DNA of 48,597 nt. Origin: Linderina pennispora (taxonomy: Eukaryota > Kickxellomycota > Kickxellomycetes > Kickxellales > Kickxellaceae). The stretch spans positions 1 to 48,597 of the forward strand of contig NW_024468310.1 of assembly GCF_002104995.1 (NCBI RefSeq), in the 5' to 3' direction. Under the pieces are notes generated by a model. The model was not told where the DNA came from. It saw only the letters and a list, made by a program, of their open reading frames with translations, and ran no database searches. Position 1 is the first letter of the stretch; the number at the start of each line of letters is the position of its first letter. A program made the translations under genes and the position numbers. Shown piece after piece: positions 6,736-35,671 of this stretch.

Positions 6736-7590
6736 TCAGGGCAGAGGCAGAAGGTCTATGGAAGCGTGCTGGGCAAGCGCCAGCAGGTCGTCGGACAGCA
6801 GGCGCTTGCGGTCGGCAAACAGCAACCGATACGAGTTCTTAATCGTGACTTCGCTGACCCCAGCGACATTGGAAATAACCTTGGCGTCCCTGGGCTGGCC
6901 GACCAAATGCGACGCCATATAAATGCAAGCGCCGGCCACCGACACAGGGCTCTTGCCCGCCAACGTATCGCACTCCCTGGCGCGTCTGCTCAGCTCCACT
7001 GCACACTCCACGGCGCCCCTGAGCAGCGACAAATTCGCGCAGAACCTAGCCATCAGATCGCCCGACGACATACTGCAGGCGCCCAGCTTGTCTTTCAGGA
7101 GCTTAAATGTCCTGCCGATATCGCGCCTGGGCACGCGCGTCAACGCACAGATCTCCTTAAAGGTCCTTGGCACGCCCTCCTGGCGGCAGGCCAGGAAAAT
7201 GCACGTGGCCAGGACTGCGTCGAGGCTTTTGCCGCGGTGCAGGCTGCGGGCCTCGGCGCGTTGATACAGCGAGCGCGCAGTATGGTCTATTGTCAGCGAA
7301 AGGTCCATCGACTGGCACATTTGCGAGAGCTGCGAGAAGGCCCGCGTGAGATTGCGCTCGTGCCGCTGCTGCGCCGCGCGGCTTGCCGGCTTGGGCGATT
7401 CGGCCGCTGTCGAGTCGCCAGAGTCGCTGCCGGCCACGTCCATTAGCAAAAGTGCGTCTTGCAGCTGCGTCTGCTTGATTGTTGTCCAGCTATGGCAGCT
7501 GCATGCCGTCGGCGTGATGTGGATACGGGATGTGCACTGTGCGCACGGTATTGTTGGGCTGCGCACTGGTGTTGTGTCTGTAGAAGGCAT
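6736..7590 (-). CDS. TFIIB-like protein with reduced zinc ribbon and no B-reader
   Basis: A 284-residue tandem paralogue of TFIIB. Two cyclin-like repeats are clear: RHERNLTRAFSQL at about 77-89, [20 protein letters not shown] at 141-160, and GKSPVSVAGACIYMAS at 212-227. The N-terminus differs sharply. C16 and C19 form the first zinc knuckle, but the second is compressed to C30-S-C32-H33, with about 10 residues between knuckles against about 17 in TFIIB of this window. The GLVLGDR...SEWRTF B-reader/linker is absent, replaced by a Ser/Ala/Pro linker (51-75). Without a B-reader it is unlikely to replace TFIIB in start-site selection. It may bind TBP or DNA as a modulator, which is inference. 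The frame is intact. Confidence 0.82.
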   Translation of the reverse strand: MPSTDTTPVRSPTIPCAQCTSRIHITPTACSCHSWTTIKQTQLQDALLLMDVAGSDSGDSTAAESPKPASRAAQQRHERNLTRAFSQLSQMCQSMDLSLTIDHTARSLYQRAEARSLHRGKSLDAVLATCIFLACRQEGVPRTFKEICALTRVPRRDIGRTFKLLKDKLGACSMSSGDLMARFCANLSLLRGAVECAVELSRRARECDTLAGKSPVSVAGACIYMASHLVGQPRDAKVISNVAGVSEVTIKNSYRLLFADRKRLLSDDLLALAQHASIDLLPLP

Positions 7591-12510: not shown

Positions 12511-13218
12511 ATGCGTTTCACTTCCGCTATCACTGCCTTCTCGGTCGTCTCGGCTGTTGTCGCCAACCCGGTGTATGTCCGTGGCTACTCGGGCAATGTC
12601 GGTCAGGTCATCACTTACCCAGGTGCCGCTCCCTATGTCCCCTATCCGGATACTGTTCCCTACCCGGGCACTGTTCCCTACCCGGGCACTGTTCCCTACC
12701 CGGGCACTGTTCCCTATCCAGGTGCTGGCCTTCCTGGAGCTGGTCTCCCGGGTAACTCCGGCGGCTCTAACAACGGCGGTGGTTCCAACAACGGCGGTGG
12801 TTCCAACAATGGCGGTGGCTCTAACAACGGCGGCGGTTCCAACAACGGCGGCGGCTCCAACAACGGTGGCGGTTCCAACAACGGCGGCTCCAACAACGGC
12901 GGCTCGGGCGGCCAGATCGGCAACCCGGCGGACTGCGGCCTGAAGCCGGGCCAGAAGGCAGCGCTGACACCCCTGGTGGACGAGCTCAAGCTGACCAGGA
13001 CCGTGGACGACCTGAAGCATCTGGTGCACCAGATCACCGATCTGCTCGGCGACACCCTGCAGGAATCTGCCATCACCTCGGTCCTGAACATCGTCGATTC
13101 GTTGGTCGCCGGCCTTGGCCTCGGTGGCCTCGACCTCAAGGCGACCATCGATTCCGTCACTAGCATCCTTTACAAGCAGGTGCCGTGCCTGGTTGACACC
13201 CTGCTACCCAAGCCCTGA
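12511..13218 (+). CDS. secreted repeat protein A (PYPGTV and NNGGGS repeats, two-Cys C-terminal domain)
   Basis: A 235-residue secreted protein of unknown function. The signal peptide is about residues 1-18 (MRFTSAITAFSVVSAVVANP). Next come near-identical 18-nt repeats coding PYPGTV (about 49-72), then a Ser-Asn-Gly block with NNGGGS units (about 86-135). The last 100 residues are non-repetitive, from NPADCGLKPGQ to QVPCLVDTLLPKP, with exactly two cysteines and amphipathic helical character. This domain is shared with the proteins at 16.5, 18.3 and 28.6 kb, and more distantly at 14.1 kb. The two Cys probably form a disulfide, which is inference. Fungal cell-wall or surface-matrix protein is the likeliest role. 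I do not recognise a named family. Confidence 0.82.
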   Translation: MRFTSAITAFSVVSAVVANPVYVRGYSGNVGQVITYPGAAPYVPYPDTVPYPGTVPYPGTVPYPGTVPYPGAGLPGAGLPGNSGGSNNGGGSNNGGGSNNGGGSNNGGGSNNGGGSNNGGGSNNGGSNNGGSGGQIGNPADCGLKPGQKAALTPLVDELKLTRTVDDLKHLVHQITDLLGDTLQESAITSVLNIVDSLVAGLGLGGLDLKATIDSVTSILYKQVPCLVDTLLPKP

Positions 13219-14103
13219 AAACGGGATCCCGAGACTTTTCGTTCTTTCGTTAACGCGCAATTTCCTCGATGGAAAATGCCTTTTTCATTTGCAGAAATCT
13301 TCGCAAATAATTGATTGCTTTCTTTCAATATACAAGCACAGCCTTTTAAAAATATCTACTGCCGGTACCCAGGATTTGCTTTCCTAGCAACCAACATTCA
13401 CCTTTCTAGAAGGTAAATACCTCGTGTGCTTTCCGATTCGACAAAACATAGAAGGATAGTGACGCTGCTTCCCAAGATCTATTTTTAGGCTGTCAGATTT
13501 CTGAAATATCATAAGCGATTGGCAATATCCAGATCATGCTAGAAAGTGCCGAGACCATGCCAATGTGGTCCTATAAAAAGAATTTCTTGGAAAGGCAATT
13601 GACATTGCACGGCAGGTATCCAGCACCGTGTTTCCTACCTCTTCTGAATCTCCTGTATGTGACCTGCCCATAGGATTTCCGCTACTTGCATAGGCAATTA
13701 ATCGCTGATACTGGACTCTACGCGTCGCTAAAAAGATAGCTGTGTCCTACAAGGGAACTAAAATGTGCCTATAGTAGTTTGATGGATTTGCAAACTGCGT
13801 ACCGTCTTTGTTGACATTCTTTGGTCTCTCGCAGATGCCCAGCATTGATTTCCTCTAATGATAGTTCCTTTGGGTGTTTCGCGCAGGCCGGGCATTCTTT
13901 GGCAGGTACCGGCGAGGGCCGAGAGGACGACCATTAGTTTAAATTACCAGCATAGTCCACAGTGATATAAAAAGCAACGATTCTACTCCACAACCAACAC
14001 CAGCAAACGCTAACCTCACACCCCCAAGCATTCGCATCTCCACCTCATACATCCCTTCTGCCCAAGCATCCTCCCCAAAACCGGACTTCCCCATATCAAC
14101 AGA
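13219..14103. other. intergenic with TATA box for the 14.1-kb gene
   Basis: An 885-bp spacer without a supported gene. CTATAAAAAG near 13571 and ATATAAAAA at 13965-13973 are TATA-like. The second is correctly placed for the gene at 14104, followed by a C/A-rich leader. Confidence 0.5.
13966..13972 (+). promoter_or_regulatory. TATA box
   Basis: TATAAAA 131 bp upstream of ATG 14104. Confidence 0.6.
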
Positions 14104-14499
14104 ATGCGCGCATTTACCTTCCTCGCACCCTTCCTTCTGGCCACGCTGTCTGCGGCCGCCCCGACTGGCCCTTCGCTGTCTACGCGCCAGGAGCAGAACC
14201 CGGCCGTGCAGAAGATGGTCAGCTGCGGCGTCAAGAAGGAAGACATTGACGGATTGACCCCGATTGCCGAGCAGTTCAAGGAAAACGTCACCACAGATGG
14301 CCTCGAGACCCTGACAAACATCCTTGGACATGTCGCCAGCTCGGTCGGCAGCGGGCCATTTGCACCCTTGCAGATCGCTTTGGGCGTTACCAAGGAGCTG
14401 ACCCGTGATGTTCACATCACGCCTCAGAACCTCAAGCAGCTGGTGTCGTTTGTCGGCGATAACCTTGAGAACCTGCCTTGCCTTGTCAACGGCAAATAA
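14104..14499 (+). CDS. small secreted two-Cys protein, repeat-less relative of the silk-like family
   Basis: A 131-residue protein with signal peptide MRAFTFLAPFLLATLSAAAP and no repeats. The mature part has two cysteines in the same context as the C-terminal domain of the large repeat proteins. It begins VSCGVKKEDIDGLTPI, against DCGVSAGQISALTPL in the 16.5-kb protein, and ends ENLPCLVNGK, against NQVPCLLDTLLPKP. The spacing between the Cys is similar, about 85-90 residues. It therefore looks like the free-standing form of that domain. The role is unknown: surface protein or secreted helper of the repeat proteins. Confidence 0.78.
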   Translation: MRAFTFLAPFLLATLSAAAPTGPSLSTRQEQNPAVQKMVSCGVKKEDIDGLTPIAEQFKENVTTDGLETLTNILGHVASSVGSGPFAPLQIALGVTKELTRDVHITPQNLKQLVSFVGDNLENLPCLVNGK

Positions 14500-14962
14500 A
14501 TCCTGTTACCGGATTGTTTCTTGGTACCCCTCCCTCCTCTCCTTTTTCTCCAACTTATATTTCCCTCACAATAAAGCCGTGCATGCCGTCCTATAGCGAG
14601 TCAGAAACTCACATTAGTACCTATGGACACGTATTACGTCATACGAGAAACGATTATTTCCGATTCTATGAGTGTGCGTCTAGAAATAGCGGTGTTCATT
14701 ATTATCTTGTCCCTCCTTCATGACCGAATCTTGTATTCGAGAGATGCCAGCATGCTGCTGTCGTGTGAAGTGTTTCTCGAAATAGCTATGCTAATTTTGT
14801 ATTGCCACTCACACATTGCACTAGATTCCTTTCGTGCTTCATATATGCCGATGCGTCATTAGCACCGTGGACAGGTATATAAGATCAGACGAATGTGCTC
14901 GACAGCACCGTCTTCCTAGGTATACCACTTGCAAACCACTCAGCATCCGGATAAAAACAATC
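14500..14962. other. intergenic with TATA box
   Basis: A 463-bp spacer with a TATATAA box at 14876-14882. Otherwise I see nothing. Confidence 0.5.
14876..14882 (+). promoter_or_regulatory. TATA box (TATATAA)
   Basis: It lies 80 bp upstream of ATG 14963 of the frame-broken secreted gene. Confidence 0.5.
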
Positions 14963-15561
14963 ATGCACTTCTTCTCCGCCCACCCTCTTCTCGCACTCGC
15001 CTCTTTTGCGGCTGCCTCGCCTATCCACCTGGAATCTCGCCACATGATTGCCACAGCTGCTTCCCCCATTCCCGCATTCCTATCCTTGGTGCTGCGCCAG
15101 CTGCTTCCAGCGGCAACTCAGGTTCCAACGTAGGTTCCGCCGACCAACTCCTAAAGACCGTCTCGATCGTCCTCTCTAGTATCGCCTCCCCTGCCGGTGA
15201 CAGAAGTGCAATGCCCCTGAAGCAAGAACTTGGAAAAGTACTCCAAACTTTCAGCAGTTTACTGGGCAACAATAGTGCCGCGAAGATAGCTGGCCCACAG
15301 AAGCGGGCTAACATGGAGGCTATTGATAATGCCACGGCAGTTATTAGTGACATTGTACCATTGGCTGCAAGAATCATTAGCCGCTTCAATACGGGTGGTG
15401 CCTCAGCTTCTGCTGCTCCATCTACCAGAGATTTTGCAGCGGGACCCATGAACATAGCACAGCATGACCTCATTACGATCGCTGATAACACTGTCAACAA
15501 GGCTATGCTGCCTCTCAATGACACTAGCAACAACACCAATCAGGAAAGCGCTTCCGCCTGA
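14963..15561 (+). pseudogene. secreted protein without cysteines, one frame break
   Basis: The signal peptide MHFFSAHPLLALASFAAASP starts at ATG 14963 behind a TATA box, but that frame stops at 15131. A second frame, one base earlier, carries the body from GAAPAASSGNSGSNVGSADQ to the stop at 15561. It has amphipathic segments and an Asn/Thr/Ser-rich tail. One missing base between about 15060 and 15090, perhaps in the CCCCC run, would join them to about 199 residues. No GT-AG pair of realistic intron length explains the switch. The body lacks the CG...PCL cysteines of its neighbours, though it is similar in size and helical character. It is either a sequencing deletion or a young pseudogene. 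Confidence 0.6.
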
Positions 15562-16544
15562 TTGCGTCCGCAGTTTTATTCAATTGTCTCCGATAAATAA
15601 ATAACTGCTCGCGCACACAGCGCTGCCAGACATGCAGAAAGATGTGGCTTTTGTGTCAGCAGGCCGGTAATCGGGCCGTCTCATACAGATCATCGGCTCA
15701 GCGAATCTACACACGCCTCAGTCGAAGCCAACTAACAGTGCAAAAACAAGCAGAAACACGACTCTCAGAGTGGTGACATAGGGCTATTATGCCGATTTGT
15801 GGAGGGTAGGCAAAACTGTAAACACACCCCAAGCCTTGTTGGCCACGACCAAATGTAGGCAGACGGTCTATATGCGGTCCGCCGTGATTGTGACGGAGCT
15901 GTCAACATAGGCTGACAATATGTGTAAACGCTGTTCAAGACACAGCTCTGCATTTTGTCCCAGTCAGAGCTTGTGAGAAAAGTGTAAGCGAAAAGGTCCA
16001 TATATTGTGTTTGTGGTTGCAAAAGAGGCAAGGGGTGACAGTTTGTTGTGCTCTCGTGAGTGAATTGTCAAGCACAAATAAAACGAAGGAATACAGGAGC
16101 CAAAATGCAATCTCCCGCCAATCATCATATACGTCTCTGGTGGCTGCCGTGCATATATGGTGTCTCTTTAGCTATCTGGAAAACATGCAGAATTGCGGGT
16201 TCTAGACGGGCTTTTAAACAATCGACAGGCGGCGCAAAGCTTTCCATACTGCAGAGGGCTCCGCCACATATCTTCTGCGGTCAATCATTTGCGAAATATC
16301 TATGCGGTCCAAACCGAACGCTTCCAGGCAGTATGGATGGTCTGGCTGTTGAAAGAAAGTACTGTAACCGCATGGCCTCTGGTCATATTTGCCGTATATA
16401 ACGGCATGAGGAATCTCGCTCTCACAGACGATTCGATATCAGCCTTTCAAGCACAGTTTGAAAACAGCCTTCTTCTCGCATCTCCTAATCCCTCGTCCCC
16501 TTCCTCCCTTTATCCTACCTAGCTAGATAATTTAATAATTGGAA
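15562..16544. other. intergenic with TATA in a short palindrome
   Basis: A 983-bp spacer. The only clear element is the TATA box at 16395-16401, followed by a C/T-rich leader just before ATG 16545. Confidence 0.5.
16391..16405 (+). promoter_or_regulatory. TATA box flanked by GCCGT/ACGGC
   Basis: TATATAA (16395-16401) sits inside the palindrome GCCGTATATAACGGC, 143 bp upstream of ATG 16545. Confidence 0.55.
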
Positions 16545-17372
16545 ATGCGTGTCTCGTCAACCTACCTTGCTCTTGCTCTTGCGGCTGTTACTGCTGCTAC
16601 TCCTCTTGTCGTTCGCGGCTACGATAAGCCGCCCTACGGTGACGACGGTGTTGGCCATCATGGTGGTGATGGTTTCCCTGGTGGTCCGGGTGGTGGCTTC
16701 CCTGGTGGTCCGGGTGGTGGTTTCCCTGGTGGTCCGGGCGGCCCTGGCAATGGTGGACCGGGCAACGGCGGCCCTGGTAACGGTGGCCCTGGTAACGGTG
16801 GTGGACCTGGCAACGGCGGCGGCCCTGGCAACGGTGGACCAGGCAATGGCGGACCAGGCAATGGCGGACCAGGCAACGGTGGACCAGGCAATGGCGGACC
16901 AGGCAATGGCGGACCAGGCAATGGCGGACCAGGCAATGGCGGACCTGGTAACGGTGGTGGACCTGGTAACGGTGGTGGACCTGGTAACGGCGGCGGCCCT
17001 GGAAATGGCGGTCCTGGCAACGGCGGTCCTGGTAACGGTGGACCGGGCAACGGTGGTGGTGTTGGCAACCCTGCTGACTGCGGTGTTTCCGCTGGCCAGA
17101 TCTCTGCTCTCACCCCGCTCCTTACGCGCCTCGGTCTCGATACCACTGTCGATGGTGTCAAGAAGCTCGTTGTCCACCTGACCGATGCTGTCGGTGACCT
17201 GCTTGAGAGCCCCGCCATCAACGGCCCGGAGGGTGTCAGTGGCATTGTCAGCAACCTTGTCAACGGCCTCCTCGGCTCACCCCTGGACCTGTCCAACACC
17301 CTGGACGCCGTCAGCAGCATCCTGTACAACCAGGTTCCGTGCCTGCTCGACACCCTCCTCCCCAAGCCCTAA
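16545..17372 (+). CDS. secreted silk-like protein B (GPGNG pentapeptide repeats, two-Cys C-terminal domain)
   Basis: A 275-residue protein from ATG 16545 (MRVSSTYLAL). Signal peptide about 1-19, then a His/Asp linker, three GGGFPGGP units, about twenty GPGNG pentapeptides, and a 100-residue C-terminal domain (NPADCGVSAGQ to QVPCLLDTLLPKP) with two Cys. Synonymous codons vary between repeats, so the amino-acid pattern appears selected. GPGNG resembles the GPGGX repeats of flagelliform silk and the turn-forming PG repeats of elastin. The repeat core plus conserved helical C-terminal domain is also a silk-like layout. Functional similarity is inference. The 18.3-kb gene is a close tandem duplicate. 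Expected location is the cell wall or extracellular matrix. Confidence 0.85.
   Translation: MRVSSTYLALALAAVTAATPLVVRGYDKPPYGDDGVGHHGGDGFPGGPGGGFPGGPGGGFPGGPGGPGNGGPGNGGPGNGGPGNGGGPGNGGGPGNGGPGNGGPGNGGPGNGGPGNGGPGNGGPGNGGPGNGGPGNGGGPGNGGGPGNGGGPGNGGPGNGGPGNGGPGNGGGVGNPADCGVSAGQISALTPLLTRLGLDTTVDGVKKLVVHLTDAVGDLLESPAINGPEGVSGIVSNLVNGLLGSPLDLSNTLDAVSSILYNQVPCLLDTLLPKP
16674..17061 (+). repeat. FPGGPGG and GPGNG coding repeats
   Basis: Three 21-nt FPGGPGG-type units are followed by about twenty 15-nt units coding GPGNG, with some extra Gly codons (GGGPGNG). Third positions vary freely. Long open frames on the other strand here are shadows of this repeat. Confidence 0.9.
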
Positions 17373-18326
17373 GCACGCCAGGCGATGCTTTCGCAAAACG
17401 GTCTCTTTTCCATATAGTCTCCCAATTTTCGATTATTAGTCTCTTTCTAGCAGGTCCGGTTTACCAACAATATTCGCATATCCATAATACCCGTCTGGAA
17501 TTTGTTTGTGGCGCCGCCAGAAATATTGGCTGGATGCAAGAGGCAGCTATTGTTTCCATCTCATACTCATGGCGCGTGGCTTGGAAAGTGGTCTGAATGT
17601 GCCTGGGCGCTCGCTGCAAGCCACACATGCGGGTATCTGAGAGACAGACCGAGCTCTTCTGCATGTTACGGGTGCGAGCATACACAGGCGTGTTCAATGG
17701 CAGGCGGTAGCACTTGAATTGGCATATATTTTACGGCCACAATCCTGCGCATCCCTTGAAAGCCCACAGGTGCACTATTCGTCTGAACTTTGACAATGCA
17801 ATTATGCCGCCCCTATTATTGCAAGAAGACCTGTTTGTACATGTAAAGTGCGAAGCGTCAAGTGCTTGTTCGGTGGCAACAGCCTGTCGCCCCTTCATCT
17901 CATGGGAACAGCAGATGAATATGGAGATTCCATATAAAGTATAGTGGAGAGACAACCACTCCACTGCTCCGCCACTGCAGCCATGCAGGACCGCTATGCT
18001 ATTTCAGTGACCTGGGTAGCGCTCGGTGCATTTCAAGCGGTGCATTTTTTGCGCCATTATTCACGTAGGGCACATCTTCAGCCTACACGCTCGTTAGAAC
18101 AAGCCATTGCTGAGCTTGTGAGATATTCCCGAGTCCACTTCGTGCAAAGTGTAGGGCCTAGTCCGAGCAGCCTGATGCCAAAAATCTTTAAAATGGCTCG
18201 CTGGAGGACCTACGATATGACTACCACACCAGCTTTCAGCCTTCCTCACCTCAGCCTAGTTCTTGCAAGATCAGCAGCCCAGCTCCTTCGGTTGACATCC
18301 CACCATACTTCATCTGAATCAGTAAA
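17373..18326. other. intergenic between the two GPGNG genes
   Basis: A 954-bp spacer. CATATAAAG at 17931-17939 and a TTTAAAA at 18188-18194 are the only TATA-like elements. No gene is supported. Confidence 0.45.
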
Positions 18327-19199
18327 ATGCGTCTTTCCTCGACTTTCGTTGTCGCCGTCCTTGCTACGTGCACTGCTGCCTCCCCAATTACTCGTCGTGG
18401 CGACTACGATGATCCTCACGCCGCTGTCCCTGAGTTCGTCTATCCTGGCTTCCCCGGCTTCCCTGGTGGCCATGGTGGCCATGGCGGCCATGGGGGTCCT
18501 GGTTTCCCCGGTGGTCCGGGCGGCCCTGGCAATGGTGGACCGGGCAACGGCGGACCGGGCAATGGTGGACCTGGTAACGGTGGGCCGGGTAACGGCGGCC
18601 CTGGCAATGGCGGCCCTGGCAATGGTGGCCCTGGCAATGGTGGACCGGGCAACGGCGGACCGGGCAACGGCGGACCGGGCAATGGTGGTCCTGGTAACGG
18701 TGGACCGGGTAACGGCGGCCCTGGCAATGGTGGACCTGGAAATGGTGGGCCGGGCAACGGCGGTCCTGGAAATGGCGGTCCTGGTAACGGTGGGCCGGGC
18801 AATGGTGGGCCGGGCAACGGCGGTCCTGGAAATGGCGGTCCTGGAAATGGCGGTCCTGGCAATGGTGGACCGGGCAATGGTGGTGGTGTTGGCAACCCCG
18901 CCAACTGCGGTGTTTCCGCTGGCCAGATCTCTGCTCTCACCCCGCTCCTTACGCGCCTCGGTCTCGATACCACTGTCGATGGTGTCAAGAAGCTCGTTGT
19001 CCACCTGACCGATGCTGTTGGCGATCTGGTGAATAGTCCCGCCATCAACGGCCCGGAGGGTGTCAGTGGTGTTGTCAACAACCTCGTCAACGGCCTCCTC
19101 GGCTCACCCCTTGATCTGTCAAATACACTCACTGCTGTTAGCAGCATCCTCCACAACCAGGTTCCGTGCCTGCTCGACACCCTCCTCCCTAAGCCCTAG
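18327..19199 (+). CDS. secreted silk-like protein C (GPGNG repeats, two-Cys C-terminal domain)
   Basis: A 290-residue tandem duplicate of protein B, starting at ATG 18327 (MRLSSTFVVA). Signal peptide about 1-19 (CTAASP), followed by TRR, a possible Kex2 site. Next comes a short GFPGGHGGHGG stretch, about two dozen GPGNG units, and the C-terminal domain from NPANCGVSAGQ to QVPCLLDTLLPKP. A 115-bp block (18904-19018) is identical to 17077-17191 of gene B, synonymous sites included, while flanking parts differ. That points to recent duplication or gene conversion. The C-terminal domain therefore seems constrained or homogenised while repeat number drifts. It is probably an extracellular structural protein. 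Confidence 0.85.
   Translation: MRLSSTFVVAVLATCTAASPITRRGDYDDPHAAVPEFVYPGFPGFPGGHGGHGGHGGPGFPGGPGGPGNGGPGNGGPGNGGPGNGGPGNGGPGNGGPGNGGPGNGGPGNGGPGNGGPGNGGPGNGGPGNGGPGNGGPGNGGPGNGGPGNGGPGNGGPGNGGPGNGGPGNGGPGNGGPGNGGPGNGGGVGNPANCGVSAGQISALTPLLTRLGLDTTVDGVKKLVVHLTDAVGDLVNSPAINGPEGVSGVVNNLVNGLLGSPLDLSNTLTAVSSILHNQVPCLLDTLLPKP
18528..18888 (+). repeat. GPGNG coding repeat array
   Basis: About 24 uninterrupted 15-nt units coding GPGNG, with synonymous variation. Confidence 0.9.
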
Positions 19200-19764
19200 A
19201 GTGGAAGAGGGAGGTTCCTATAGTGGCCAAACCGGATACCTTGGCTCCATATAAGGACTAGCACTGTTTATCTTCAATAATACTCATTTACCATTCGATT
19301 AAGTAGTGTTGCACGCCCGCTGCGGCTGTCCCTGACGTAGACATGCCAGCCGGATCAGGTGACAGCAAGCCAGGCGCCAACGAGAGCCCCGCTACAGCCT
19401 ACGATATGGAGGTAGTCTAGCCTCTGATAGGTTGCACAGACGGCCGTATTGAAAGCTCCCCTGCACAGTTCGTCTACTCCCTTTTCTCTCTTTTCTTCAG
19501 TATTAAATATAACTTTTAAAATCCCCACACACTCAACAAACATAACAGTAGTATGCACGCATGAATCGTGGGGTTTGTTCGTGTTATGTATTGTGATGTG
19601 TCGATTGTCAATCTACATGGTCAGTTTACATGCAAATATAGAAATGGCTATTAACGTCTAGAAAAGTAATGTGTATTGGGAAGTGTATAAGTTGGATTGC
19701 GAGTACGAAAGACGAGCCTCCTCACTAGAAAGACAATGTCCACAGGTTGTGAGAGCGACATCGC
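19200..19764. other. intergenic (convergent 3' ends)
   Basis: A 565-bp spacer between silk-like gene C on the plus strand and the large hAT-derived gene on the minus strand. No gene is supported. Confidence 0.5.
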
Positions 19765-19956
19765 CTACTTTTGGTGCTGCGCTTGGAAATCAAATGCAGT
19801 GTGTGGCAGAGGATTGTTGTTGCCAGGTAGCGACGTGGAAAGCTGCTGGAGACTTGGGTTTCTGGATATGTCGAGTGATGCACTGGGGAGGCTAGGTATG
19901 CACGACATGTTCATTGCAGCGGCCTGCGATGCCAGTGCAACCTGAGAACCATAGCT

Positions 19957-19992
<36 letters not shown>

Positions 19993-22900
19993 GGCAGGCA
20001 TAAACATTCCGCTGCCTGCACCAGAGAATGAGAGCGAGTCGGCGTGGCCACTTCCAGCGGGCATGGTCAAGCCAGCAAACGAGTCGTGAGGCTGCAGAGG
20101 GAGGATATGCGACGACTGGTTAGATATAGTAGCCGCAAGCACTTGGGTGGTGACTGGGTCCAACCCCATGTTCGAAACCAGCTGCGCGATAGTGGTTCCA
20201 AAGGACTCTGTGTCATGCTGGTCACTTCCATCCATATCCATGGCACCGGCTAGCGACGATGCCGCCCGCTGCTGCGACTGGTCAGTCGCCAAAAGCTGGA
20301 CCGGCTGGTGCATAGTACCCATATGGCTGTAGCTACGGTATTCTCCGCTGGTCATGCGATCTGGGAGCTGTCTCTGACGCTTACTCGGCGGCATGCTTGC
20401 AATCGACTGGGCATCGTCGCTCGGAATATTGCTGGGCTCAGCTGCAAACGCATGGTTCCTGGCTGACGGGAACGTAGATGAAGGCATGGTCTGCGTAGAC
20501 ATCGCTGCCGATGATGGGTCCTGCGGGATAGTCGACGGGTCAGACAGCAGGGCTTCGAGCAGCGGTAAAGTGCTGATATCCGGTGTTTGGTTCTGTAGAT
20601 CTGGGATTATACTGGCAGTGCGATCCAGCACGCTCTTCGCTGTCGGGCTATCTACTTTTGCGCTGACCACACCATGCGATGGTGAACTAATGTCGCCGGA
20701 AGCCACACTGTCTACCAGGTAGTGGTGCGGCCTCTTCAATGCCATTGAAGGCGTCAGCGAAGCTGGGGTCTCTGTTGCAGCCACCAGCGCCGATCGCCTC
20801 GATCCAGAAACGCTGCTGATAAGGCCGCTGCCGTCGTTTCCAGGCAGTGAATTGGAGGCGGCCGATGCACCAGCCGCCAGCAGCTTCTTGCCCTTCGACA
20901 GGTGCGATGTCTTTGCAGTGGGCTTTGGGGAACGACAGACCAGGCGCCAGTACCCGCGCATCGAATTGAGCAGCCACTTGGGGCAGTCGCCAGGGTGCTT
21001 GGCCACGGCCAGTGGAGATGAGGCAAACTCTATTGATAGCAAGCGCAGACGGTGGTCGAGGGCCATAGTCACCGCATCGAGGCTCTTGAGGAAGTAATCA
21101 ACGGTGACTCCAGTGAGCTCGATGCCCTTGACTGTCTCTTCGTATCCCGAGATGTCCTTGGAAACCTCAACCTTGCTGTTCTGCAGCAGGTCATACACGG
21201 TGACCTTCTTGGTCTTGGACGGACCTGACGACGACAGCTTGTTCAGCAGCTCAGAGAAAGTCTCTCCCATGTCAAAGTTCACCGAGCTCAGCTTGTTCTC
21301 GGCCTGCTCGCGGCAGATGCGCAGAAGCTGCTTCTCGTACCGCTCGCGGAACTCGTAGACTTTTGGAGAAGTCGCTAGCGGCAGCACATTCCATGCAGTG
21401 GACAGCTTGGCCAGACTCGGGTACTTTGTCATGGGCGGCGGCGGGTGTGACTCGGCACCAGAGGCTGACAAGTGCGGTGTCGCCGACAACCGGCGAGCAT
21501 AGACCTGCCGCTCATCAGGTTCCAAGGACCGCAGCCGGCGCCGACTAGGAGCAAGCATGCTGCTGGGGAACAGAATATCGCGGTACACTGCCTGTACTTC
21601 GTTTGTTGAGAACGGACCATGCAGAGGCCTGGGCTCCGAGTCGCCATCGTCATCGTCGTCGTCGGCGCCACGGTACGTGTGTTCAGCCTTGACCTTTTCC
21701 GCCGATGCAGTGTCTATCGCGGCCATACGACGCTGTGCCAGCTCCTTGTATGCCTCTGCCTTGAACAGCCTCCACTCTTCCACCAACGTGCGCATATCCA
21801 CCAGCTGCATTGGTGGCCTCATGCCGAGCTCGTTGCCGCTGGAGCCATGCACACCAAGGCCTGAGATGGTTGGCACCGAGCCGCGCTGTCTTTGCGACTC
21901 TGCAAACTGGGCCAGATGGACGTTGCCAAAGACAGCAAGGTCCTCTGCCTTGGCCGGGTACTTGTCTGGGCTCCAGAGCTCAGAGATCGCCTTCAGGGAG
22001 TCCAGGTCGTCAGTGGAGAAGCGCACGTGCAGGTCCTGCAAGATCGCCGCCGCCGCAGTGCGAATGAGCTCGATCAGGCGTGCTGGGCTTTCATCCTTCG
22101 AGTAATTGCACAGCTTGAAGCTGCGGAATGTGCATTCGTCGGAGTCATTGTTCCGGGTAGTCAGCTGCATGAACTCGTTCAGATGATGGCCAGCATAGTC
22201 GTCATCTCCCAACTCAACGTTCACCTGGGGGGGAGTCCTGTCGACTTGCATCGAGCTGTCTTCGTCGTCGTCCTCTTCGTCGTGACGATCATCTCCATAC
22301 ATCTGGCTAATCGAGTCTACTACATCACGGATCGTATCGACGCACAGACGCTGTAGCTGATCCAGCGTCTTCTTCGGCTTGTCCTCCGAGTTGGTCTGCA
22401 TTGCAAACGCACGACTAGGTGGCTCCAGGTGGTCGCCCAGATCCAGGATCGGCTTGACCTGCAGCAATATGTCGGCCATAAAGTGCAAGCAGCCAAGGAA
22501 GTTGTAGTCTCTCAAGTGCTCATACAAGACGTCTGGCAGCGGACACCGGTTCCCACCGCTCCTCGACGAGTTGCCCATTGAAGACATGAGTATGTCAACA
22601 ACCGGGAGTGGGATCTGCATGGCTGCACGCGGCGATTTGGGCGACCGAGTCAACGACGGCGAGATGCCATCCCCGGTATCGGGAACCACGCTGCTGCGCG
22701 ACGGATCCAGGCTTGATGGAGCTTGGCGAGCTGTTGATACCTTGGCCAGTGCTGCTACCGTGACCACGATCTGCGAAATGTTGCGAGCAATGGTGATGAC
22801 AATCGTAGGCATGAGCGAGATAGGCAGGCGCGTGGTGCGCGTAGTGTCGGTGAACAGGATCTCAAACAGTGTCTTGTAGAGGGTCTCCTGGAAATCGATG

Positions 22901-25900
22901 CCCAAAAACGCGAAGCTGCCAGGGTGCGAGTACACAAACAGACACAGGTCCATCAGCGTCATCGAGAAGCTGACAAAGTCATCCGACTTGTTGGCAATTT
23001 CCTCATACAGCTGAGGCGAAAGCGAATGTGCATATGTAAATACGCCGTGCCAATGGAGCGCATGCGGCAGCCGAAGACGCTCCATGGCGTTAAAGCCCGC
23101 TGTGGTTGGCCGCTCGTACGATATGCATACCAGCCGATCAAGATCGATCTTGGCCCGCCTCAGTAGTACCATGACAATGCCGATAGGGTCACGACGCGCG
23201 ACTCGACCGTCTTTTTCGTGGTACAGATGGACGCAGCGCCAGAAGCGCGTTGCTACCTCAAGCTCGCCTGTCTCAGACAATGGGTCGCGGCGCAGATAGC
23301 GCAAATACAGCAGCACGTGTGCGACCAGACTGTTGTGCTCGCGGATCGGTGCCTCGTCAATGATCACCGAGAAAGCTGGCGATTCGCTGACTTCATCCTT
23401 AATTAGCGACAATACCTCACTCGACACCACGTGCTGCAGTGACCGCGCAGCCTCGATGCCATCGCACAAAGCGCCTGCCAGACTGACGTCATCCTTCTTC
23501 GCCCTGCTCCTGGCTGCAGCGCCAGTCGAGCCGATGGTCGAAATGGGTGCCGGAGCAAGCTGCAGCTTGTACAGATTTAAGACCGATGACAGCGGGAGAT
23601 TGTGATCCATGGCCTGGAGCAGCGCCTGCAGCGCAAAGTTGAACTCCTTAATGTACTTCTCCTCCATCATTGCGCTGCTGCTGCTACTGACCGATGACGA
23701 CACTGTGGTGCGGCTGGCGCCACGTACCACAAGGTTGCCACGCGGCGCTTCGGGTGCAGGCGTGGCCGCTGCGGGGTGGCAATGTTCTTCTGACATATGT
23801 AACGCAGAGTTGAACGTGTCGACGGTATTTGTCGAGTCAGCCGTATTGGTCTGAGCTGCGGGTGTCCGGGCTGAAACGACAACTGAGCCGTCTGAAGACT
23901 GTTGCGTGTGGTTTACGGCGATTGTCGATGCTTCCGCAGTCTCTGACATCTGTGGCATGTGTGGTGGAAACCCGGCACCACTGACTCTTGCCAAATTTTG
24001 CAATTGCTGCTGGTGCTGGTGCTGGTGCTGGTGCTGGTGCTGGTGCTGGTGCTGGTGCTGGTGCTGGTGCTGGTGCTGGTGCTGGTGCTGGTGCTGGTGA
24101 GGTGTTGCTGCTGTAGACGATTCTGAAAAATGACGCATCTCGGACACAATCTCCATATGTCGGTTGGGGTTGACAAGCTCGAGAGACTGCGAGGCACCGG
24201 CCTGCCGTGGTGGACCAGGCTTGGTAGCTGTATTCATACCGCTGGCGCGAGGCGTATCCGCCGAACTAGGAGCATGCCGTGGCGACGAAGTGGCTGGGCG
24301 CAGTTCGCCAGGAGATTGTGTCAGCACGACATTTGTCTGCAGTGGCTTGTTATGATCACTGGCCGAGCCAGTTGCGAGTGAGGAGGTCGGCGACACTGCA
24401 GCCCACAAGCCATCGATAAGGACAAGCACGGGGTTGCCGGGCCCAAAGGACGGGGCACCAAACTGTGCCACGCTCCGCTGGTGGTCGTTGCTGGTAGAGT
24501 GGTCGACCAGCGCCGACGTCTTAAAGTTGCGGCTGCCACGCTTGGCAAACTGATTGGCACGCTTGCCGTCCTTGCACAGCGCACACATCATGGCATTGGC
24601 CTGCGGGTCAAAGCGCAGCCATGGGTAGTCGTATAGCCATTTCAGGTTGAACCGGCGCTTGTCGCTGCCTACGGCCGCTCCAATTGTCATTGAGCTCCGT
24701 CCAGTAGCCAGTAGGTCGCCGGGGATCTGGTAGTTTCCGTTGACGGCAATCACTGCGCCACGCTCAGCGAGATCTTCCATGCGAACGACACCGCCATTAT
24801 CGACGTCAGCATTGTTGCTGTTGTTGTGCTGAATCTTCTGGGTCGAGGCTATCGGCGGTGGCTCCTCGTTGTTAAAAGCGTGCGCTGCTCCCACTGGTAC
24901 AGTACTCTGGTGACCATGCGTAGTGCCTATTGATTGGTGGCCGTCTATATCTCGGCCACGCCCCCGTCCCCGGCCACGCCCACGGATCTTACCACGCCCA
25001 CGCCCAGCAATAGTGCTTGGGTTTATTTGCGATTCGGCCGAGACTGTGACTGTGGCCGCACTCACTGCTGCTGCTGCTGCCACTGCCGCCGCTGTTCTTG
25101 GCGATAGTGCCGCTTCTGATACTAGGAGCGGTTGCCGGCTCCGTGGTGGTTGTTGTTGCTGCTGTTGCTGCTGAGTATGTGCATTTGCTGAAGGTGCTGG
25201 CGTTGCCAGTGTCTGTCGCCGAACGGGCTGCTCTACAGTAAGGAAATCGTCCGGGAACCGCATACGGTTAGGCATTAGCGGTAGAGTAGAAAAGGGGAGC
25301 TTTTATAGTGAGAGATGCATCAACAATGAATAAGCAGATATGGCGGCTAATGCAAAAAGAAAAAAAAGAAAAAGAAAAAGCCAGTGCAGATATATACAAG
25401 AGAAAGCGATAAGGGAAAGGAGAGAGGCATCCTCGGACTGGTGGTAGGGGGCGGGAGGGTCTGTTGATGCTGCCAACCTGGTATGGCTTTCTTTGCCTCC
25501 CCGATTTCGCCACCTTGTGAACACGAAAGGAGCAGGCTCCTCTCACACAATCGAGATGCATCTTTTCTCCCTCGCTCTATACGGCGAACAATGGCCGAAA
25601 ATAGGGAAGGGCGCCAGGCGTGTCTTGCTACGGCGGAAGAACATTGCACTCGCTGGGCAAGTAGTACGCAAGTACTCATCGTGCGCACACCCTGGAAATT
25701 ATTCCCACCGCAAGGACACGCAATAAAACATAATCGCGACAATCCCTTTTGACTTTACCTTTGAGGTGCCCACTATTGACAAAGATAGCCGGCGTTGTTG
25801 ATGTAGTGGCGATTGGCACGGTTAGCATTGGCACAAATGGCAGCGCAGGATTTATGCCACCCTGCGCCAGCGCGGCAGCCACATTCTGCTGCTGTTGTCG

Positions 25901-26722
25901 CTGCTGTTGCGAGGTCGATTTAACCGCGCCTTCCATATTTTGCCGGTTTTGAAATCCAAGAGCAGTGAAGTAGCGGCCAATTGGCAAGTTCGACAGGTCA
26001 GTAGCCAGCGATGGTGGCATGCTGCCCATCAAGATTCCCGCTGATTTGTCGACGCCGTTATTGCCGCCGTGGTCAGTTGGGTTGTTGCTGCCGCTGTTAC
26101 TGCTCCCCTGTAGCGTCAGATATGTCTGGTGCGATGCTGGTGTCTGGAGCATAAGGTTGCTAGCAAAGTTGTGGGTGGCCGGATGCATGCCCGCACCGTA
26201 GGAGGCGGTCGGTGCCGATGGGATGTTGCTATGTGTTGCTGAGATGCTGGCAGCATTGTTGCTGTAGTTGTACAAGAGCTGATCCATAGCCGATGCACCG
26301 CTGTTCACTGCGTTAGCCGCCAGCCCGTTAACCGCTGTCATCTCGTTGATCAGACTGTCAGCCAACGATGCCGCCGGCTGCTGCTGTTGCTGCTGTTGCT
26401 GCTGTTGCTGCTGTTGCTGCTGTTGCTGTTGTTGCTGTTGCTGTTGTTGCTGCGCCATCGAGAGGTTGTTTTGATCTGTGCCCTGGCCGTATCGCATGGT
26501 AGCCAGTCCGAGAACAGCCACAGATGATGTGGGCGTGAGCGACACTAAAAATCGGTTGTCAGCCCCTGCACTACGGCTGCTGTCAACTGCGCCACCGAAT
26601 GGTGCTGGATTTGGGGTTTGTAGCCGACCTGAGGGAGGCGAAGTAAGGTGCTGCTGGTGGGTGGTGCCGTCGCTGTATGTCGAAATGCGCGGGGCCGGTC
26701 CGCCACTGCTCGGGTTATTCAT
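19765..26722 (-). CDS. large Q-rich protein with domesticated hAT-type transposase core (two exons)
   Basis: Best read as one gene: exon 1 26722-25759, intron 25758-25233, exon 2 25232-19765, in frame and 2143 residues long. Exon 1 has a polyQ run of about 25 and is disordered. Exon 2 has a TTF/BED-like zinc finger, W-L-F near CALC, then H-x5-H (about residues 530-580 of the joined protein). An (HQ)15 run follows. A hAT-like catalytic region comes next, with VIIDEAP at the first Asp, LDRLVCISYERPT where active enzymes have a GTDGASVM-like second Asp, and HWHGVFTYAHSL at the CVAHRL position. The second Asp is missing, so transposition is unlikely. It ends in a conserved-looking helical part and another polyQ. 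Probably a nuclear DNA-binding host protein. Alternatively there are two genes, with an ATG at 25275 giving 1836 residues. Confidence 0.72.
19958..19990. repeat. (TGC)11 trinucleotide repeat
   Basis: Codes polyGln near the C-terminus of the large minus-strand protein. Confidence 0.9.
24009..24098. repeat. (GCTGGT)15 hexanucleotide repeat
   Basis: Fifteen perfect GCTGGT units, read on the minus strand as alternating His-Gln. The lack of any interruption suggests recent expansion and length polymorphism. Confidence 0.92.
25233..25758 (-). other. predicted 526-bp intron with a second acceptor
   Basis: The donor is AAAG|GTAAAG at 25758, leaving phase 1. The acceptor CCTTACTGTAG ends at 25233, with CTAAC about 35 bases upstream as a plausible branch site. 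The join restores the long frame. A second acceptor with a long pyrimidine tract, TTTTTGCATTAG ending at 25347, would instead give a short product ending at 25303. Confidence 0.6.
26378..26453. repeat. CTG/TTG repeat coding polyGln
   Basis: A run of about 25 mixed CAG/CAA codons on the minus strand, in exon 1 of the large protein. Confidence 0.9.
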
Positions 26723-28587
26723 GAGTGGGCGGGAGATTGCGTGTACGCTTGAGTGTATCTGCTTGATCCGTAAAAATCACCAGCTGCGCGAAAGCAAACA
26801 GGAAGATCAAGCGCGGTGATCAGAGAGCTATTTTTGACGGATGAGGCTGGCCTACAAAAAAAGGTGGGGAAAGGTAGATCGATGCTGCTTAGTGAGGCTC
26901 ATGCTATGATCTCTGGCATGTTCATGGATGACGGACATTGGAAAACAGGGCGTGCTGTCAATGAAAATAGTCAAGGCATAAGCGAACCTGCGACCGATAG
27001 CGGAAGGGCGAAGAGTGCGTTTCTTCGGGGCAAGAGAAGTCATAAAATCATCAAGCACGGTTTTGCGATAGACCGCCTATATCTCCGATAGGTCGTCGTA
27101 TACATGCGCGTGGAGGATGTAGAATTCTGCAGAGACTAAGCTGCGCCTTACCTTTTATTGCCAAGCGCTATCTGTTACTGCCTGCGAGTTGGCCGTATCC
27201 ACTGCGTCGGAACTCTGTTTTACTTTCCGGATATCAGGTGACTAGATAGCGGAAGCAGCTTTTTCGGGAGCACTGCGTGGGTGTGATGCCACCTCCTGGT
27301 CTTTCTGGAAGCCTACTGCAGGTGGTGTGGCTGGAGGGCGGGTCGGAATCGAAAAGAGCAGGCGCACTGGTTCTGTCTGAGGCGTTCTGCTGGGTGACTA
27401 GCGTCCGACGGCGGGGTTTGCTGCTAACAAACAAAGGTGCAATAATAAGGCAGGTTTTGTTGCGAGTGCGTGGGCTACTGTGCAGTAGAGCGCGTGGCGT
27501 CTGATGATAAGAGTACAAAGCTTCGGGATAAAAAAGCAGGGCGGAGAGGTATGCCGGGTAGAAAAGCTAGAAAGGTGAGGGAGTGGAAAAGCAAGGAAAA
27601 GAATCGGCCGTGGCCTCGCAATTAGCCTCTTTTTGTCAAGCAGCCCGAGCCAGGAAGAGATTATTGGCTTTTGCCCAGAATTTTTCCCTTTGATAAAAAT
27701 GCCAGACAGCGAAGCGGGACGCTTATGAAAAGTGGATCACAATTGGTTCGTTCTCGATCGTATGATATCCTAAAAGGAGCGCCATCATGGACGGATACAT
27801 GCCATTGGAGCACATGCGGGCAGCTTGCGGCAGTGGGCGCCGGGCACAGTCAACACGCGCGCTGCTCCAAAATAGAACTACCGCAAGCGCAAACATACCC
27901 AGTCGCGCACCCCACCACTGACAAAGACAAAAAGATAAAAAAAACCTTTAGGTTGCAGCAGCGGCGCACAGCGAGATACAGATGGCGTAAGCAATACCAC
28001 TAAGCAGTGTGTTGGGACATCCGCTGGCTATCTCTTATTTTACCGCTGTTGTGACATTACTTTGCAACGGCAGGCATACTGCGCGCTTGCTGCTGCTGGT
28101 AACGTTATTTCAGTGACCGCCTGCCATAGATGGAAAAATAGTAGTAGTATCCTCTACACACATGGTGTGGCGCAATGCCCAGCCAACTGTATGCGCATGG
28201 CTTGCTGTATGCACCGTCTCTCCTTGCTGGTGGGGGGAGGAGGTGGGCTAGCAGTAGTGGGATGTCAACAAACGTTCTGGTGCTTGCTGGTCATCGGAAG
28301 CGGTTGATGCGTCTTGCTGATGTGTTGGATATGGCTCAATGTCTCCTGATATAAAGCCGAGCAGGTCTGGCAATCCCGCTCCTAGAATAATCATCATCTC
28401 ATTCTCGACTCCCGAACCCGACGACCACACCACCCTACACCTCCTTCCGCGCTCATCACCCGGCACTACCTTACCCCTACATCCCTTCCTCTGCGGACCA
28501 TCTCACATACCGATAACGCAATCACGCCACCCTCCCTTTCGGAAATCAATCCCAGACCAGCATCCCTACTCTGTAGATCTCTTTGCA
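26723..28587. other. long intergenic region with divergent promoters
   Basis: About 1.9 kb between two divergent genes. Several short open frames show no family features and no consistent codon pattern. TATAAAG at 28350-28356 and the following C/A-rich leader belong to the 28.6-kb gene. Confidence 0.5.
28350..28356 (+). promoter_or_regulatory. TATA box (TATAAAG)
   Basis: It lies 232 bp upstream of ATG 28588. The intervening leader is rich in C and A. Confidence 0.5.
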
Positions 28588-29631
28588 ATGAAGTTCACCA
28601 TCGCCATCTCGCTGCTCGCTCTCCTCTCGTCGTCTGTCGCTCTTCCTGTCGATTCGCACCAGGATGGATCTGACAGCCAGCGGTCGGGCATGTCAAAGAA
28701 GGATGTAGTTCCCGCACCCCCCCTTGATCCCACTGCTTATCGTGCCGATGTACCTGTTGACGTCCCCCCGCTGCCGCCGACCACCTATTCCGCTCTGCCG
28801 CCGCCACCCCCGCTGCCTGTGCCCATTGCTCCTGTTGACCCAGTCCCTGTTGGACCCATTGAACCGGTTGCACCGGTTGCACCTATTGCACCCGGCCCTA
28901 GCTATGTCGCCCGCTCATTTGATGGACTCCCCGGCGGCCCGCTAGTTCCTCACGCGCCATATATCCCATTCGGACCTGGTGTTCCATTCGCCGGCGTGTC
29001 TTTCATCCCTGGTGTCGGTTATGTGCCCGTCACTCCTGGCAGTTTCCTTGGGGCCCCTATCGGCCTCATCGATCCGTTCTTCCCTGGCTTCCTAGGCAGT
29101 GGTGTTCCAGGTGGTCCTGTTGACCCATTCATTCCTGGTAGTCCTGGATCCGGCCTTCCAGGTACTCCTGGTGGAGGCCTTCCGGGCAGTCCTGGCGGAG
29201 GCCTTCCAGGCAGCCCTGGCGGAGGCCTTCCAGGCAGCCCTGGTGGAGGCCCTCCGGGTGGCCCTGGCGGTGGTTTCCCAGGCAATCCTGGTGGTGGTTT
29301 CCCAGGCGGTCCTGACGGGAACGGATCAAACAGCGGAGGTGGTGTCTGCGGACTCTCACCAACCCAGGTGTCCGCACTGACCCCCTTACTCAAGAAGCTT
29401 GGTCTTGCACCTACAGTCAACGAGGTGAAGAACGTGGTCGACAACATTGTGTTCAGCCTCGGCGACCTGCTAGGCAGCGAAGGCATTTCTCAGCTGCTCG
29501 GCGCAGTCAACAGCCTGGTCAGGGACCTTGGGCTTGGTGGTCTTGATGCTAGGCCCGCTGTCAACGAGGTGATCTCCATTCTGCGGAACCAGGTGCCATG
29601 TCTGCTTAACACGCTCCTCCCTCTTCCATGA
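28588..29631 (+). CDS. secreted repeat protein D (Pro-rich and PGSPGGGL repeats, two-Cys C-terminal domain)
   Basis: A 347-residue protein from ATG 28588 (MKFTIAISLL). The open frame extends 83 codons upstream through the leader, but the signal peptide MKFTIAISLLALLSSSVALP sets the start. A Pro/Val-rich region with PVAPVAPIAP follows. A mixed Pro-Gly region then leads into nine-residue repeats such as GLPGSPGGG and GFPGNPGGG, collagen- or elastin-like in composition. The last ~100 residues run from VCGLSPTQVSALTPLL to QVPCLLNTLLPLP, with the same two Cys as proteins A, B and C. It lies 9 kb from the rest of the cluster, beyond the hAT-derived gene. It is probably an extracellular matrix or wall component. 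Confidence 0.84.
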   Translation: MKFTIAISLLALLSSSVALPVDSHQDGSDSQRSGMSKKDVVPAPPLDPTAYRADVPVDVPPLPPTTYSALPPPPPLPVPIAPVDPVPVGPIEPVAPVAPIAPGPSYVARSFDGLPGGPLVPHAPYIPFGPGVPFAGVSFIPGVGYVPVTPGSFLGAPIGLIDPFFPGFLGSGVPGGPVDPFIPGSPGSGLPGTPGGGLPGSPGGGLPGSPGGGLPGSPGGGPPGGPGGGFPGNPGGGFPGGPDGNGSNSGGGVCGLSPTQVSALTPLLKKLGLAPTVNEVKNVVDNIVFSLGDLLGSEGISQLLGAVNSLVRDLGLGGLDARPAVNEVISILRNQVPCLLNTLLPLP

Positions 29632-34945: not shown

Positions 34946-35188
34946 ACGGCTTCTTCACGCTAGGCAGCGATCAATGCGAATGTACTCATACATAGCCCCT
35001 AGCTGATGTGTATATACTCGGAAAAGCGCAAGCCCAACGCGCAAATCGGGCAAGTTCTGCTCCTCATCCAAGAGCGAAATTCCCAAGGACTGGCGTGTCC
35101 AAACACCATGTGGCTCTATCTCAGCCTGCTGGATTCCGAGTTTTGTGCTATGGATATCTTTACCTATATATAAGATTTTATAGTCTAA
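34946..35188. other. 3' flank of SMG1
   Basis: A short spacer between the kinase and the helicase relic. I recognise nothing. Confidence 0.4.
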
Positions 35189-35671
35189 CTAGATGTTGGT
35201 GGAACCCTACCACCTCATCACCTCCGCCTCAAAGTAGGGGCACCAATCATACTCCTACGTAACCTGGATTCTGCCCATGGTCTATGTAATGGCACATGAC
35301 TTATATGCCATAGGTTACAGCCCCATGTGATTGATGCTGATATTATAACTGGTGCTGCTTATGGTACCAGGGTATTTATACCCCAAATGATATTAACAAC
35401 TAAGCACCAGCAATTACCATTTGTTCTACGCCGATGCCTGTTCCCAATCCGCCTTGCCTTCTCAATGACTATAAATAAGGCCCAAGGTCAAACAATGGAA
35501 CGAGTTAGGCTTTACCTTCCATCACCTGTCTTTACTCATGGCCAATTCTATGTGGCACTTTCTCGCATACAATCATTTAGTAATCTAAAGATAATGGTAT
35601 GGTCAACTATGCATTATCTTGATGGTGAACCTAAGACTAAAAACATAGTCTATAAGGAGATATTTTCTTAG
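35189..35671 (+). mobile_element. Helitron/Pif1-type helicase C-terminal relic
   Basis: One reading frame matches the last ~160 residues of Helitron-encoded Pif1-like helicases. It has [20 protein letters not shown], then NGT, a stop TGA at 35297-35299 in place of an expected Arg, LICHRLQPHVIDADIITG, FPIRLAFSMTINKAQGQT, and VFTHGQFYVALSRIQSF. The last two are helicase motifs V and VI. An in-frame TAA at 35186-35188 bounds it upstream, and I find no Rep domain or upstream helicase motifs. The base composition is more AT-rich than in neighbouring genes. It is a dead fragment of a rolling-circle transposon, or less likely of a free Pif1 gene. Confidence 0.8.

What the first reader, a model, noticed from the sequence alone, without database searches (positions are those of the whole stretch)
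12511..29631. Cluster of silk-like secreted proteins sharing a new-looking two-cysteine C-terminal domain
Seen: four proteins (12.5, 16.5, 18.3, 28.6 kb) have a signal peptide, a glycine/proline repeat block that differs between members, and a conserved ~100-residue end domain. That domain has the pattern C-G-x4-5-[AG]-L-T-P-L near its start and Q-V-P-C-L-[LV]-[DN]-T-L-L-P at its end. A fifth (14.1 kb) is the domain alone (CGV...DGLTPI...LPCLVN). Known: silk fibroins and spidroins combine a repeat core with a small conserved helical terminal domain that controls assembly. Inference: these may be fungal structural proteins whose end domain drives dimerisation or assembly. I do not recognise the domain as a named family.
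Basis: partly seen in the sequence, partly recalled or inferred. Interest (0 to 1): 0.8.

Follow-up and report, generated by a model that had tools for sequence, protein, structure and literature searches.

The report
Kickxellales secreted repeat-plus-helical-domain wall proteins
A soil and dung fungus carries a cluster of five secreted-looking proteins, four of them a flexible glycine-rich stretch joined to a small unnamed helical end domain, found so far only in its fungal order and probably used to coat or build the cell surface rather than to spin silk.

Summary
Five plus-strand genes (12511, 14104, 16545, 18327, 28588) encode secreted-looking proteins sharing a ~95-residue, two-cysteine C-terminal domain; four carry a Gly/Pro/Asn-rich block before it, one has the domain alone. 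The window is an alternative-haplotype contig of Linderina pennispora (Kickxellales); genome searches find this cluster twice, collinear at about 94-98% identity, and no other copy. The held Pfam has no family for the domain, and no natural solved structure matches clearly. Ninety of 93 database relatives carry a name, all of six Kickxellales species groups (five genera). Three domain clades shared by Linderina and Coemansia, often with neighbouring locus tags, point to an ancestral cluster. Repeat number differs in frame between haplotypes, while the domain shows mostly synonymous change. Codon usage of three of five genes suggests high expression. "Silk" is too strong: blocks are short and lack poly-Ala/GAGAG. 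The closest analogue in layout is the plant hybrid proline/glycine-rich proteins. I read these as lineage-specific wall or surface-coat proteins: a disordered hydrophilic tether plus a helical, probably disulfide-closed module that anchors or assembles (about 50%). It is an undescribed family with a known style of architecture; function is untested.

The parts
12511..13218 (+). gene 1 (clade alpha): signal-peptide-like start, VPYPGT and GGSNNG repeats, C-terminal domain at 12934-13215
14104..14499 (+). gene 2: signal-peptide-like start plus domain alone (domain 14224-14496)
16545..17372 (+). gene 3 (clade beta): signal-peptide-like start, GGPGN block, domain at 17079-17369
16740..17063 (+). 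repeat block of gene 3: G, P and N plus one terminal V (20 GPGNG units)
   Evidence: sequence
18327..19199 (+). gene 4 (clade beta): signal-peptide-like start, GGPGN block, domain at 18906-19196
18522..18890 (+). repeat block of gene 4: G, P and N plus one terminal V (24 GPGNG units)
   Evidence: sequence
28588..29631 (+). gene 5 (clade gamma): signal-peptide-like start, long Pro/Val then LPGSPGGG linker, domain at 29347-29628

Best explanation
A Kickxellales family of secreted cell-wall or spore/hyphal-surface proteins. Shown by sequence: signal-peptide-like N-terminus, Gly/Pro/Asn/Ser-rich spacer of variable length, conserved C-terminal ~95-aa Leu-rich domain, predicted helical, with two cysteines, running to the C-terminus (mostly ...LLPKP), no membrane-grade hydrophobic stretch after the signal, clustered paralogues. 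Inferred: the chain is secreted, the two cysteines close the domain by one intrachain disulfide, amphipathic helices of the domain associate with each other or with a hydrophobic or wall surface, and the spacer is a hydrated flexible brush or tether whose exact repeat and length matter little. Paralogues (alpha, beta, gamma, domain-alone) would co-assemble a coat, in the manner proposed for plant hybrid proline/glycine-rich wall proteins.
For: 97 sequences were cut (92 database hits, P0022 left out, plus five window genes); 3 lack the LTP motif, 12 more lack the first Cys or the start; of the remaining 82, 81 have exactly two Cys in the domain and 79 a domain of 94 or 97 residues. Linkers are 37% Gly, 18.5% Asn, 10.7% Ser, 10.1% Pro, with about 1% K/R and 3% D/E. 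In genes 3 and 4 the blocks (108 and 123 residues) hold only G, P and N apart from one V each, and variation within GPGNG units is at third codon positions only (units were picked by their amino acids, so block composition is the independent evidence). Haplotypes differ in length in frame: 235/236, 131/131, 275/260, 290/277 and 347/340 residues for genes 1-5, while domains (for gene 2 the whole CDS) show 16 synonymous and 6 nonsynonymous differences over about 422 and 1165 sites. Codon index of genes 1, 3, 4 domains far above nine raw window ORFs (z 5.7, 9.3, 6.1). Highest 19-residue hydropathy after residue 25 is 1.57 or less in 5 of 5, top helical moments 1.85-2.11. AF2 all-helical, mean pLDDT 70.5. 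Locus tags of alpha and beta members 1-4 apart in 10 of 16 Coemansia assemblies that list both (hand count on names and clades).
Against: No expression, localisation or binding data. Gene 5 shows no codon bias (z 0.8) and gene 2 only moderate (3.4). The fold model is moderate, its first 30 residues average 50-59, and the first job gave 59.4. 6 of 16 assemblies list alpha and beta with distant tags, and clustering at 90% identity hides genes. Signal peptides were judged by hydropathy only: 77 of 82. The two-Cys count is conditioned on the first Cys being found.
Confidence: 0.5

Rival explanations
1. Silk-like assembly: the end domain dimerises or clamps chains and the Gly/Pro block forms fibres or an elastic matrix, as spidroin C-terminal domains do.
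For: Same order of parts; GPG in 18 of 83 and PG in 72 of 83 linkers; VPYPGT in gene 1 looks elastin-like (likeness recalled). Spidroin C-terminal domains are all-helical intertwined dimers (PMC6235870, start of abstract in the listing).
Against: Short blocks; poly-Ala and GAGAG in 1 and 0 of 83 linkers; linker sequence not conserved between species; no spidroin Pfam match.
Confidence: 0.15
2. Tethered lipid or hydrophobic-surface binder: the helical domain holds a fatty acid or sits on hydrophobic solids, as HsbA/Mp1 domains and plant LTP-like 8CM domains do.
Against: Those fold matches are at noise level for helical bundles by the tool's own note (Foldseek E about 9.8); no HsbA or LTP family among Pfam matches of 78 members.
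Confidence: 0.2
3. Secreted effector, antimicrobial or environmental-interaction proteins, with repeats as spacer only.
For: Small, secreted-looking, lineage-restricted, two cysteines.
Against: Domain conserved across Kickxellales and mostly synonymous change between haplotypes rather than fast divergence.
Confidence: 0.1

Closest known systems
Plant hybrid proline-/glycine-rich proteins (HyPRP/HyGRP, 8CM domain)
   Same: Secretion signal, repetitive Pro- or Gly-rich N-terminal part of changing sequence, conserved hydrophobic C-terminal domain of usually under 100 residues, tandem gene copies, members with the domain alone (PMC2216038, passages).
   Different: Eight cysteines versus two; no sequence match to a Pfam family of that group; plants versus Kickxellales. 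Convergence is the likely reason (inference).
Spidroins
   Same: Repeat core plus small all-helical conserved C-terminal domain.
   Different: Short core without poly-Ala/GAGAG, two cysteines per domain, no Pfam match. The length of spidroins and their N-terminal domain are recalled.
HsbA / Mp1-type fungal wall proteins (PF12296)
   Same: Fungal, secreted, helical (recalled for HsbA).
   Different: No match in 78 members or in the genome (weak control); fold likeness at noise level.
Hydrophobins
   Same: Small secreted fungal surface proteins; the surface role is only proposed here.
   Different: Two cysteines, not the eight-cysteine pattern (pattern named in PMC6784888, passages).

Membership tests
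HyPRP/HyGRP (8CM) | eight-cysteine motif in the C-terminal domain | tested here: not met
   two cysteines in 81 of 82 domains, one in the other
HyPRP/HyGRP (8CM) | signal peptide, Pro/Gly-rich repetitive part, C-terminal hydrophobic helical domain | tested here: met
   architecture only; signal by hydropathy, helices by prediction
Spidroin | sequence match to spidroin terminal domains | tested here: not met
   no spidroin family among the 11 Pfam families matched at E 0.1 or better by any of 78 members
Spidroin | poly-Ala or GA crystallite motifs in the core (feature recalled) | tested here: not met
   poly-Ala 1 of 83, GAGAG 0 of 83 linkers
Spidroin | dimeric C-terminal domain | not testable with these tools
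   no complex prediction offered
HsbA (PF12296) | profile match | tested here: not met
   0 of 78 members at E 0.1 or better
HsbA (PF12296) | Mp1/HsbA helical fold | tested here: inconclusive
Hydrophobin (PF01185/PF06766) | eight-cysteine pattern | tested here: not met
   two cysteines per domain in 81 of 82

The most novel reading that the evidence does not exclude
The domain is a previously unnamed assembly or surface-active module, invented in the Kickxellales lineage, with which these fungi build a hydrated protein coat on aerial or spore walls, a stand-in for the hydrophobins of Dikarya; it may have arisen by internal duplication of a helical hairpin (an L-x-L-x-x-T-[VI]-D-like pattern in both halves).
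Probability: 0.25. Interest if true: 0.65.

Novelty: new variant of a known kind. Interest (0 to 1): 0.45.

Why it matters
[quoted passage not shown] A compact, clustered, two-module family across Kickxellales, three of whose Linderina genes have codon usage of well-expressed genes, gives a defined set of genes to test for wall or surface function, an apparently independent parallel to plant HyPRPs, and short natural glycine-proline blocks joined to a small domain. It deserves its own Pfam entry.

Tried and rejected
Pfam scans: only scattered weak matches in the family (DUF4473, Tautomerase, DUF6918 and others; best E 0.0036; at most 8 of 78 members for any one family); rejected as chance. PDB by sequence: the profile of alignment A3 gives 13 chains at E 10 or better, the best being F4132-2 chain A (8cws, E 2.7e-5, no stretch passing on its own) and a designed helical repeat protein (5cwb, E 0.0027); I take these as leucine-rich helical composition, since none is a natural secreted protein that I recognise, but the first is formally below 0.001. 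The single-sequence search with gene 5 gives ribosomal uS5 at E 0.38, over the end of the Gly-rich linker and the first half of the domain; not significant. Fold searches: no match at E 0.001 or better; the second look shows saposin and Mp1 domains among unrelated helical chains. Hydrophobin profiles in the genome rang in no control genome, so they say nothing; HsbA had no match, with one sub-cut-off control. One search's codon index put minus-strand loci on the wrong strand and is discarded; the gene 3 and gene 4 linker rows are out of frame, so linkers are taken only (z 9.5, 3.2, 2.5, 1.7 for genes 1, 3, 4, 5). The actin reference stretch (L026) holds one in-frame TAG, probably in an intron. 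Internal duplication: hhalign of the two halves scored 16.48, reached by 1 of 200 column shuffles, but its probability is only 8.8%; suggestive only. P0082 bears a precomputed Pfam label PF27998.1 that the held Pfam copy did not reproduce; 1 of 93 hits bears it, so it is unlikely to name the domain, but it was not resolved. Papers: the listings (20 of 24; 20 of 38,096; 17 of 17 papers with Linderina pennispora; 15 of 402; 10 of 277; 1 of 1) showed no title or abstract start on this family; only passages of five papers were read, and PMC9866270 is not held.
Full report
What was checked. The five genes are present on the plus strand. Start corrections: gene 3 at 16545, gene 5 at 28588; in the second haplotype the frame upstream of gene 5 differs and has no ATG. 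Each has a hydrophobic N-terminal core of signal-peptide type (12-residue hydropathy 2.02-2.36) and no later 19-residue stretch above 1.57. A profile of 61 domains with no L. pennispora row finds all five genes among 391 window frames, four at E 8e-37 or better and gene 2 at 1.2e-6; the next frame is at 0.43. Gene 2's mature part scores 26.4 bits with a profile that lacks it; the best of 5000 shuffles is 12.8. In a plain protein search of the genome with the gene 4 domain, gene 2 is marginal (E 0.014, 27% identity), so its membership rests on the profile, on the two cysteines and on its place in the cluster.

Where it comes from. Gene 2 is 99% identical to DL89DRAFT_264837 of Linderina pennispora, on a contig of 1,730,256 bases. 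That is the length of contig C112 of the window's own assembly, whose gene 2 protein equals that record. The window (contig C182, bases 1-48597) aligns from its first to its last base with C112:12988-61579 in pieces of about 94-98% identity, except for about 1 kb near 35.2-36.1 kb. Some single-gene searches also show pairs of equal-scoring copies on two contigs, though most actin-family matches occur once. I read the window as an alternative haplotype; a recent duplication is not excluded. A search with the gene 4 domain finds ten copies, five per haplotype in the same order, and none elsewhere; searches with genes 2 and 5 add none. The tool calls such counts lower bounds.

The family. A single-protein search gave 21 proteins, a search with gene 2 one, and a profile search 93 (7990 candidates scored). 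The weakest of the 93 has E 3.3e-17, with nothing between that and the limit of 10. By hand count of names, 90 of 93 carry a name: 84 Coemansia, 2 Dipsacomyces, 1 each Kickxella, Martensiomyces, Linderina macrospora and L. pennispora; three have none (P0012, P0087, P0091). L. pennispora and Dipsacomyces were looked up as Kickxellales; the placement of the others is recalled. The search needs shared five-residue words, so distant relatives elsewhere are not excluded. A tree of 94 domains splits beta plus gamma from the rest (98/96), with gamma (gene 5 and four others; 98/88) and beta (genes 3, 4 and 35 others; 99/99) inside; alpha (gene 1 and 50 others) is the remainder, next to gene 2 on a very long branch. 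The program warns of few columns and of long branches for gene 2, P0092 and P0082. P0092 of Dipsacomyces (139 aa) is a second domain-alone protein with a signal-like start; it scores 81.3 bits. Reading locus tags with the clades (P0078 placed by identity only), alpha and beta members are 1 to 4 numbers apart in 10 of 16 Coemansia assemblies that list both: RSA 1199, 1972, 552, 1813, 1200, 2336, 2320, 720, C. spiralis GGI25, C. brasiliensis. They are far apart in RSA 2559, 988, 2711, 2671, 560 and S85; C. reversa, whose tags I do not take as positional, is left out. In RSA 552 alpha, beta and gamma are 4235, 4237 and 4239. Tag distance is a proxy for gene order; the DNA was not read.

Domain versus spacer. 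Of 97 sequences cut (92 database hits and five window genes), 3 lack the LTP motif and 12 more lack the first Cys or the start; of the other 82, 81 have exactly two cysteines in the domain, and the domain is 94 (52) or 97 (27) residues long in 79. The count is conditioned on the first Cys. 80 linkers span 20-233 residues, median 106, 37% Gly. Their sequence type changes freely: GPGNG, GGGAPG, NGSGSNGSG, PPGNGGNGGN, GPGHDG, GGRGGEG. In genes 3 and 4 the block holds G, P and N only, apart from one V each, with codon variation at third positions. Between haplotypes the proteins differ in length in frame (235/236, 131/131, 275/260, 290/277, 347/340), with 20/19 and 24/22 GPGNG units in genes 3 and 4. 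The domains (for gene 2 the whole coding sequence) hold 16 synonymous and 6 nonsynonymous differences over about 422 and 1165 sites; per gene 2/0, 4/1, 0/1, 6/3, 4/1. So composition and frame of the spacer are held, its exact sequence and length are not, and the domain is conserved in sequence. Sequons N-x-S/T occur in 60 of 83 linkers, but the G/P/N blocks of genes 3 and 4 have none, so glycosylation is not a constant feature.

Structure. AF2 with 78 sequences gives helices only, mean pLDDT 70.5, ten-residue means of 77-89 over residues 41-90 and 50-59 over the first 30; an earlier job with 21 sequences gave 59.4. Foldseek finds no PDB structure at E 0.001 or better. A sequence-profile search of the PDB gives F4132-2 chain A at 2.7e-5 and a designed helical repeat protein at 0.0027, which I take as composition. 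The halves of the domain share a short L-x-L-x-x-T-[VI]-D-like pattern; 1 of 200 column shuffles scores as high, but the hhalign probability is 8.8%.

Expression hints. Against a codon index from eEF1A-, actin- and GAPDH-family stretches, domains of genes 1, 3 and 4 are far above resampling with the codon usage of nine raw window ORFs (z 5.7, 9.3, 6.1), gene 2 moderately (3.4), gene 5 not (0.8). This suggests, but does not show, high expression of the alpha and beta genes.

Reading. The architecture (secretion signal, changeable Gly/Pro spacer, fixed small helical C-terminal domain, tandem paralogues, domain-alone members) is that of plant HyPRP/HyGRP proteins, putative wall proteins whose domain group has four helices (PMC2216038, passages). 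Membership fails on the eight cysteines and on sequence. Spidroins share only the outline. I therefore favour a wall or surface-coat role with the domain as anchor or assembler, and put silk-type fibre assembly and lipid or hydrophobic-surface binding as the main rivals.

Limits. Nothing here shows secretion, expression, dimerisation or location. The statement that the family is unnamed rests on the held Pfam copy and on the capped literature listings.

Noticed in passing
window 1-48597 vs G000:C112:12988-61579: The whole window is a second, roughly 3% divergent version of the end of a 1.73 Mb contig; some other genes also occur on two contigs with equal scores. This Linderina assembly looks heterozygous, dikaryotic or partly duplicated; a review says diploids are commoner among zygomycetes than expected (PMC10386755, passages).
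   Followed up: partly
window 35157-36129: About 1 kb that does not align between the two versions, flanked by well aligned DNA.
   Followed up: no
window 14929-15561: A further secreted-looking reading frame between genes 2 and 3: a signal-peptide-like ATG frame at about 14963 and a cysteine-free downstream part in another frame, so an intron or frameshift is likely; no Pfam match. The exact start string was not found in the C112 copy.
   Followed up: partly
P0006, P0008, P0010, P0062, P0080 (Coemansia database proteins): Their N-terminal parts are Ala/Thr/Arg/Val-rich before the normal domain, as when the Gly-rich block is read in a wrong frame: likely annotation errors.
   Followed up: no
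window 5426-6451 and 6736-7590, minus strand: Two neighbouring frames each with TFIIB repeats (E 8.3e-45, 8.3e-42); parts of them cross-match at 68-70% DNA identity in the haplotype comparison, so a TFIIB-type gene duplication is likely.
   Followed up: no
window 19765-25275, minus strand: 1836-aa frame with a C17orf113-type probable zinc finger (E 4e-18) and long Gln/His runs, inside the cluster between genes 4 and 5.
   Followed up: no
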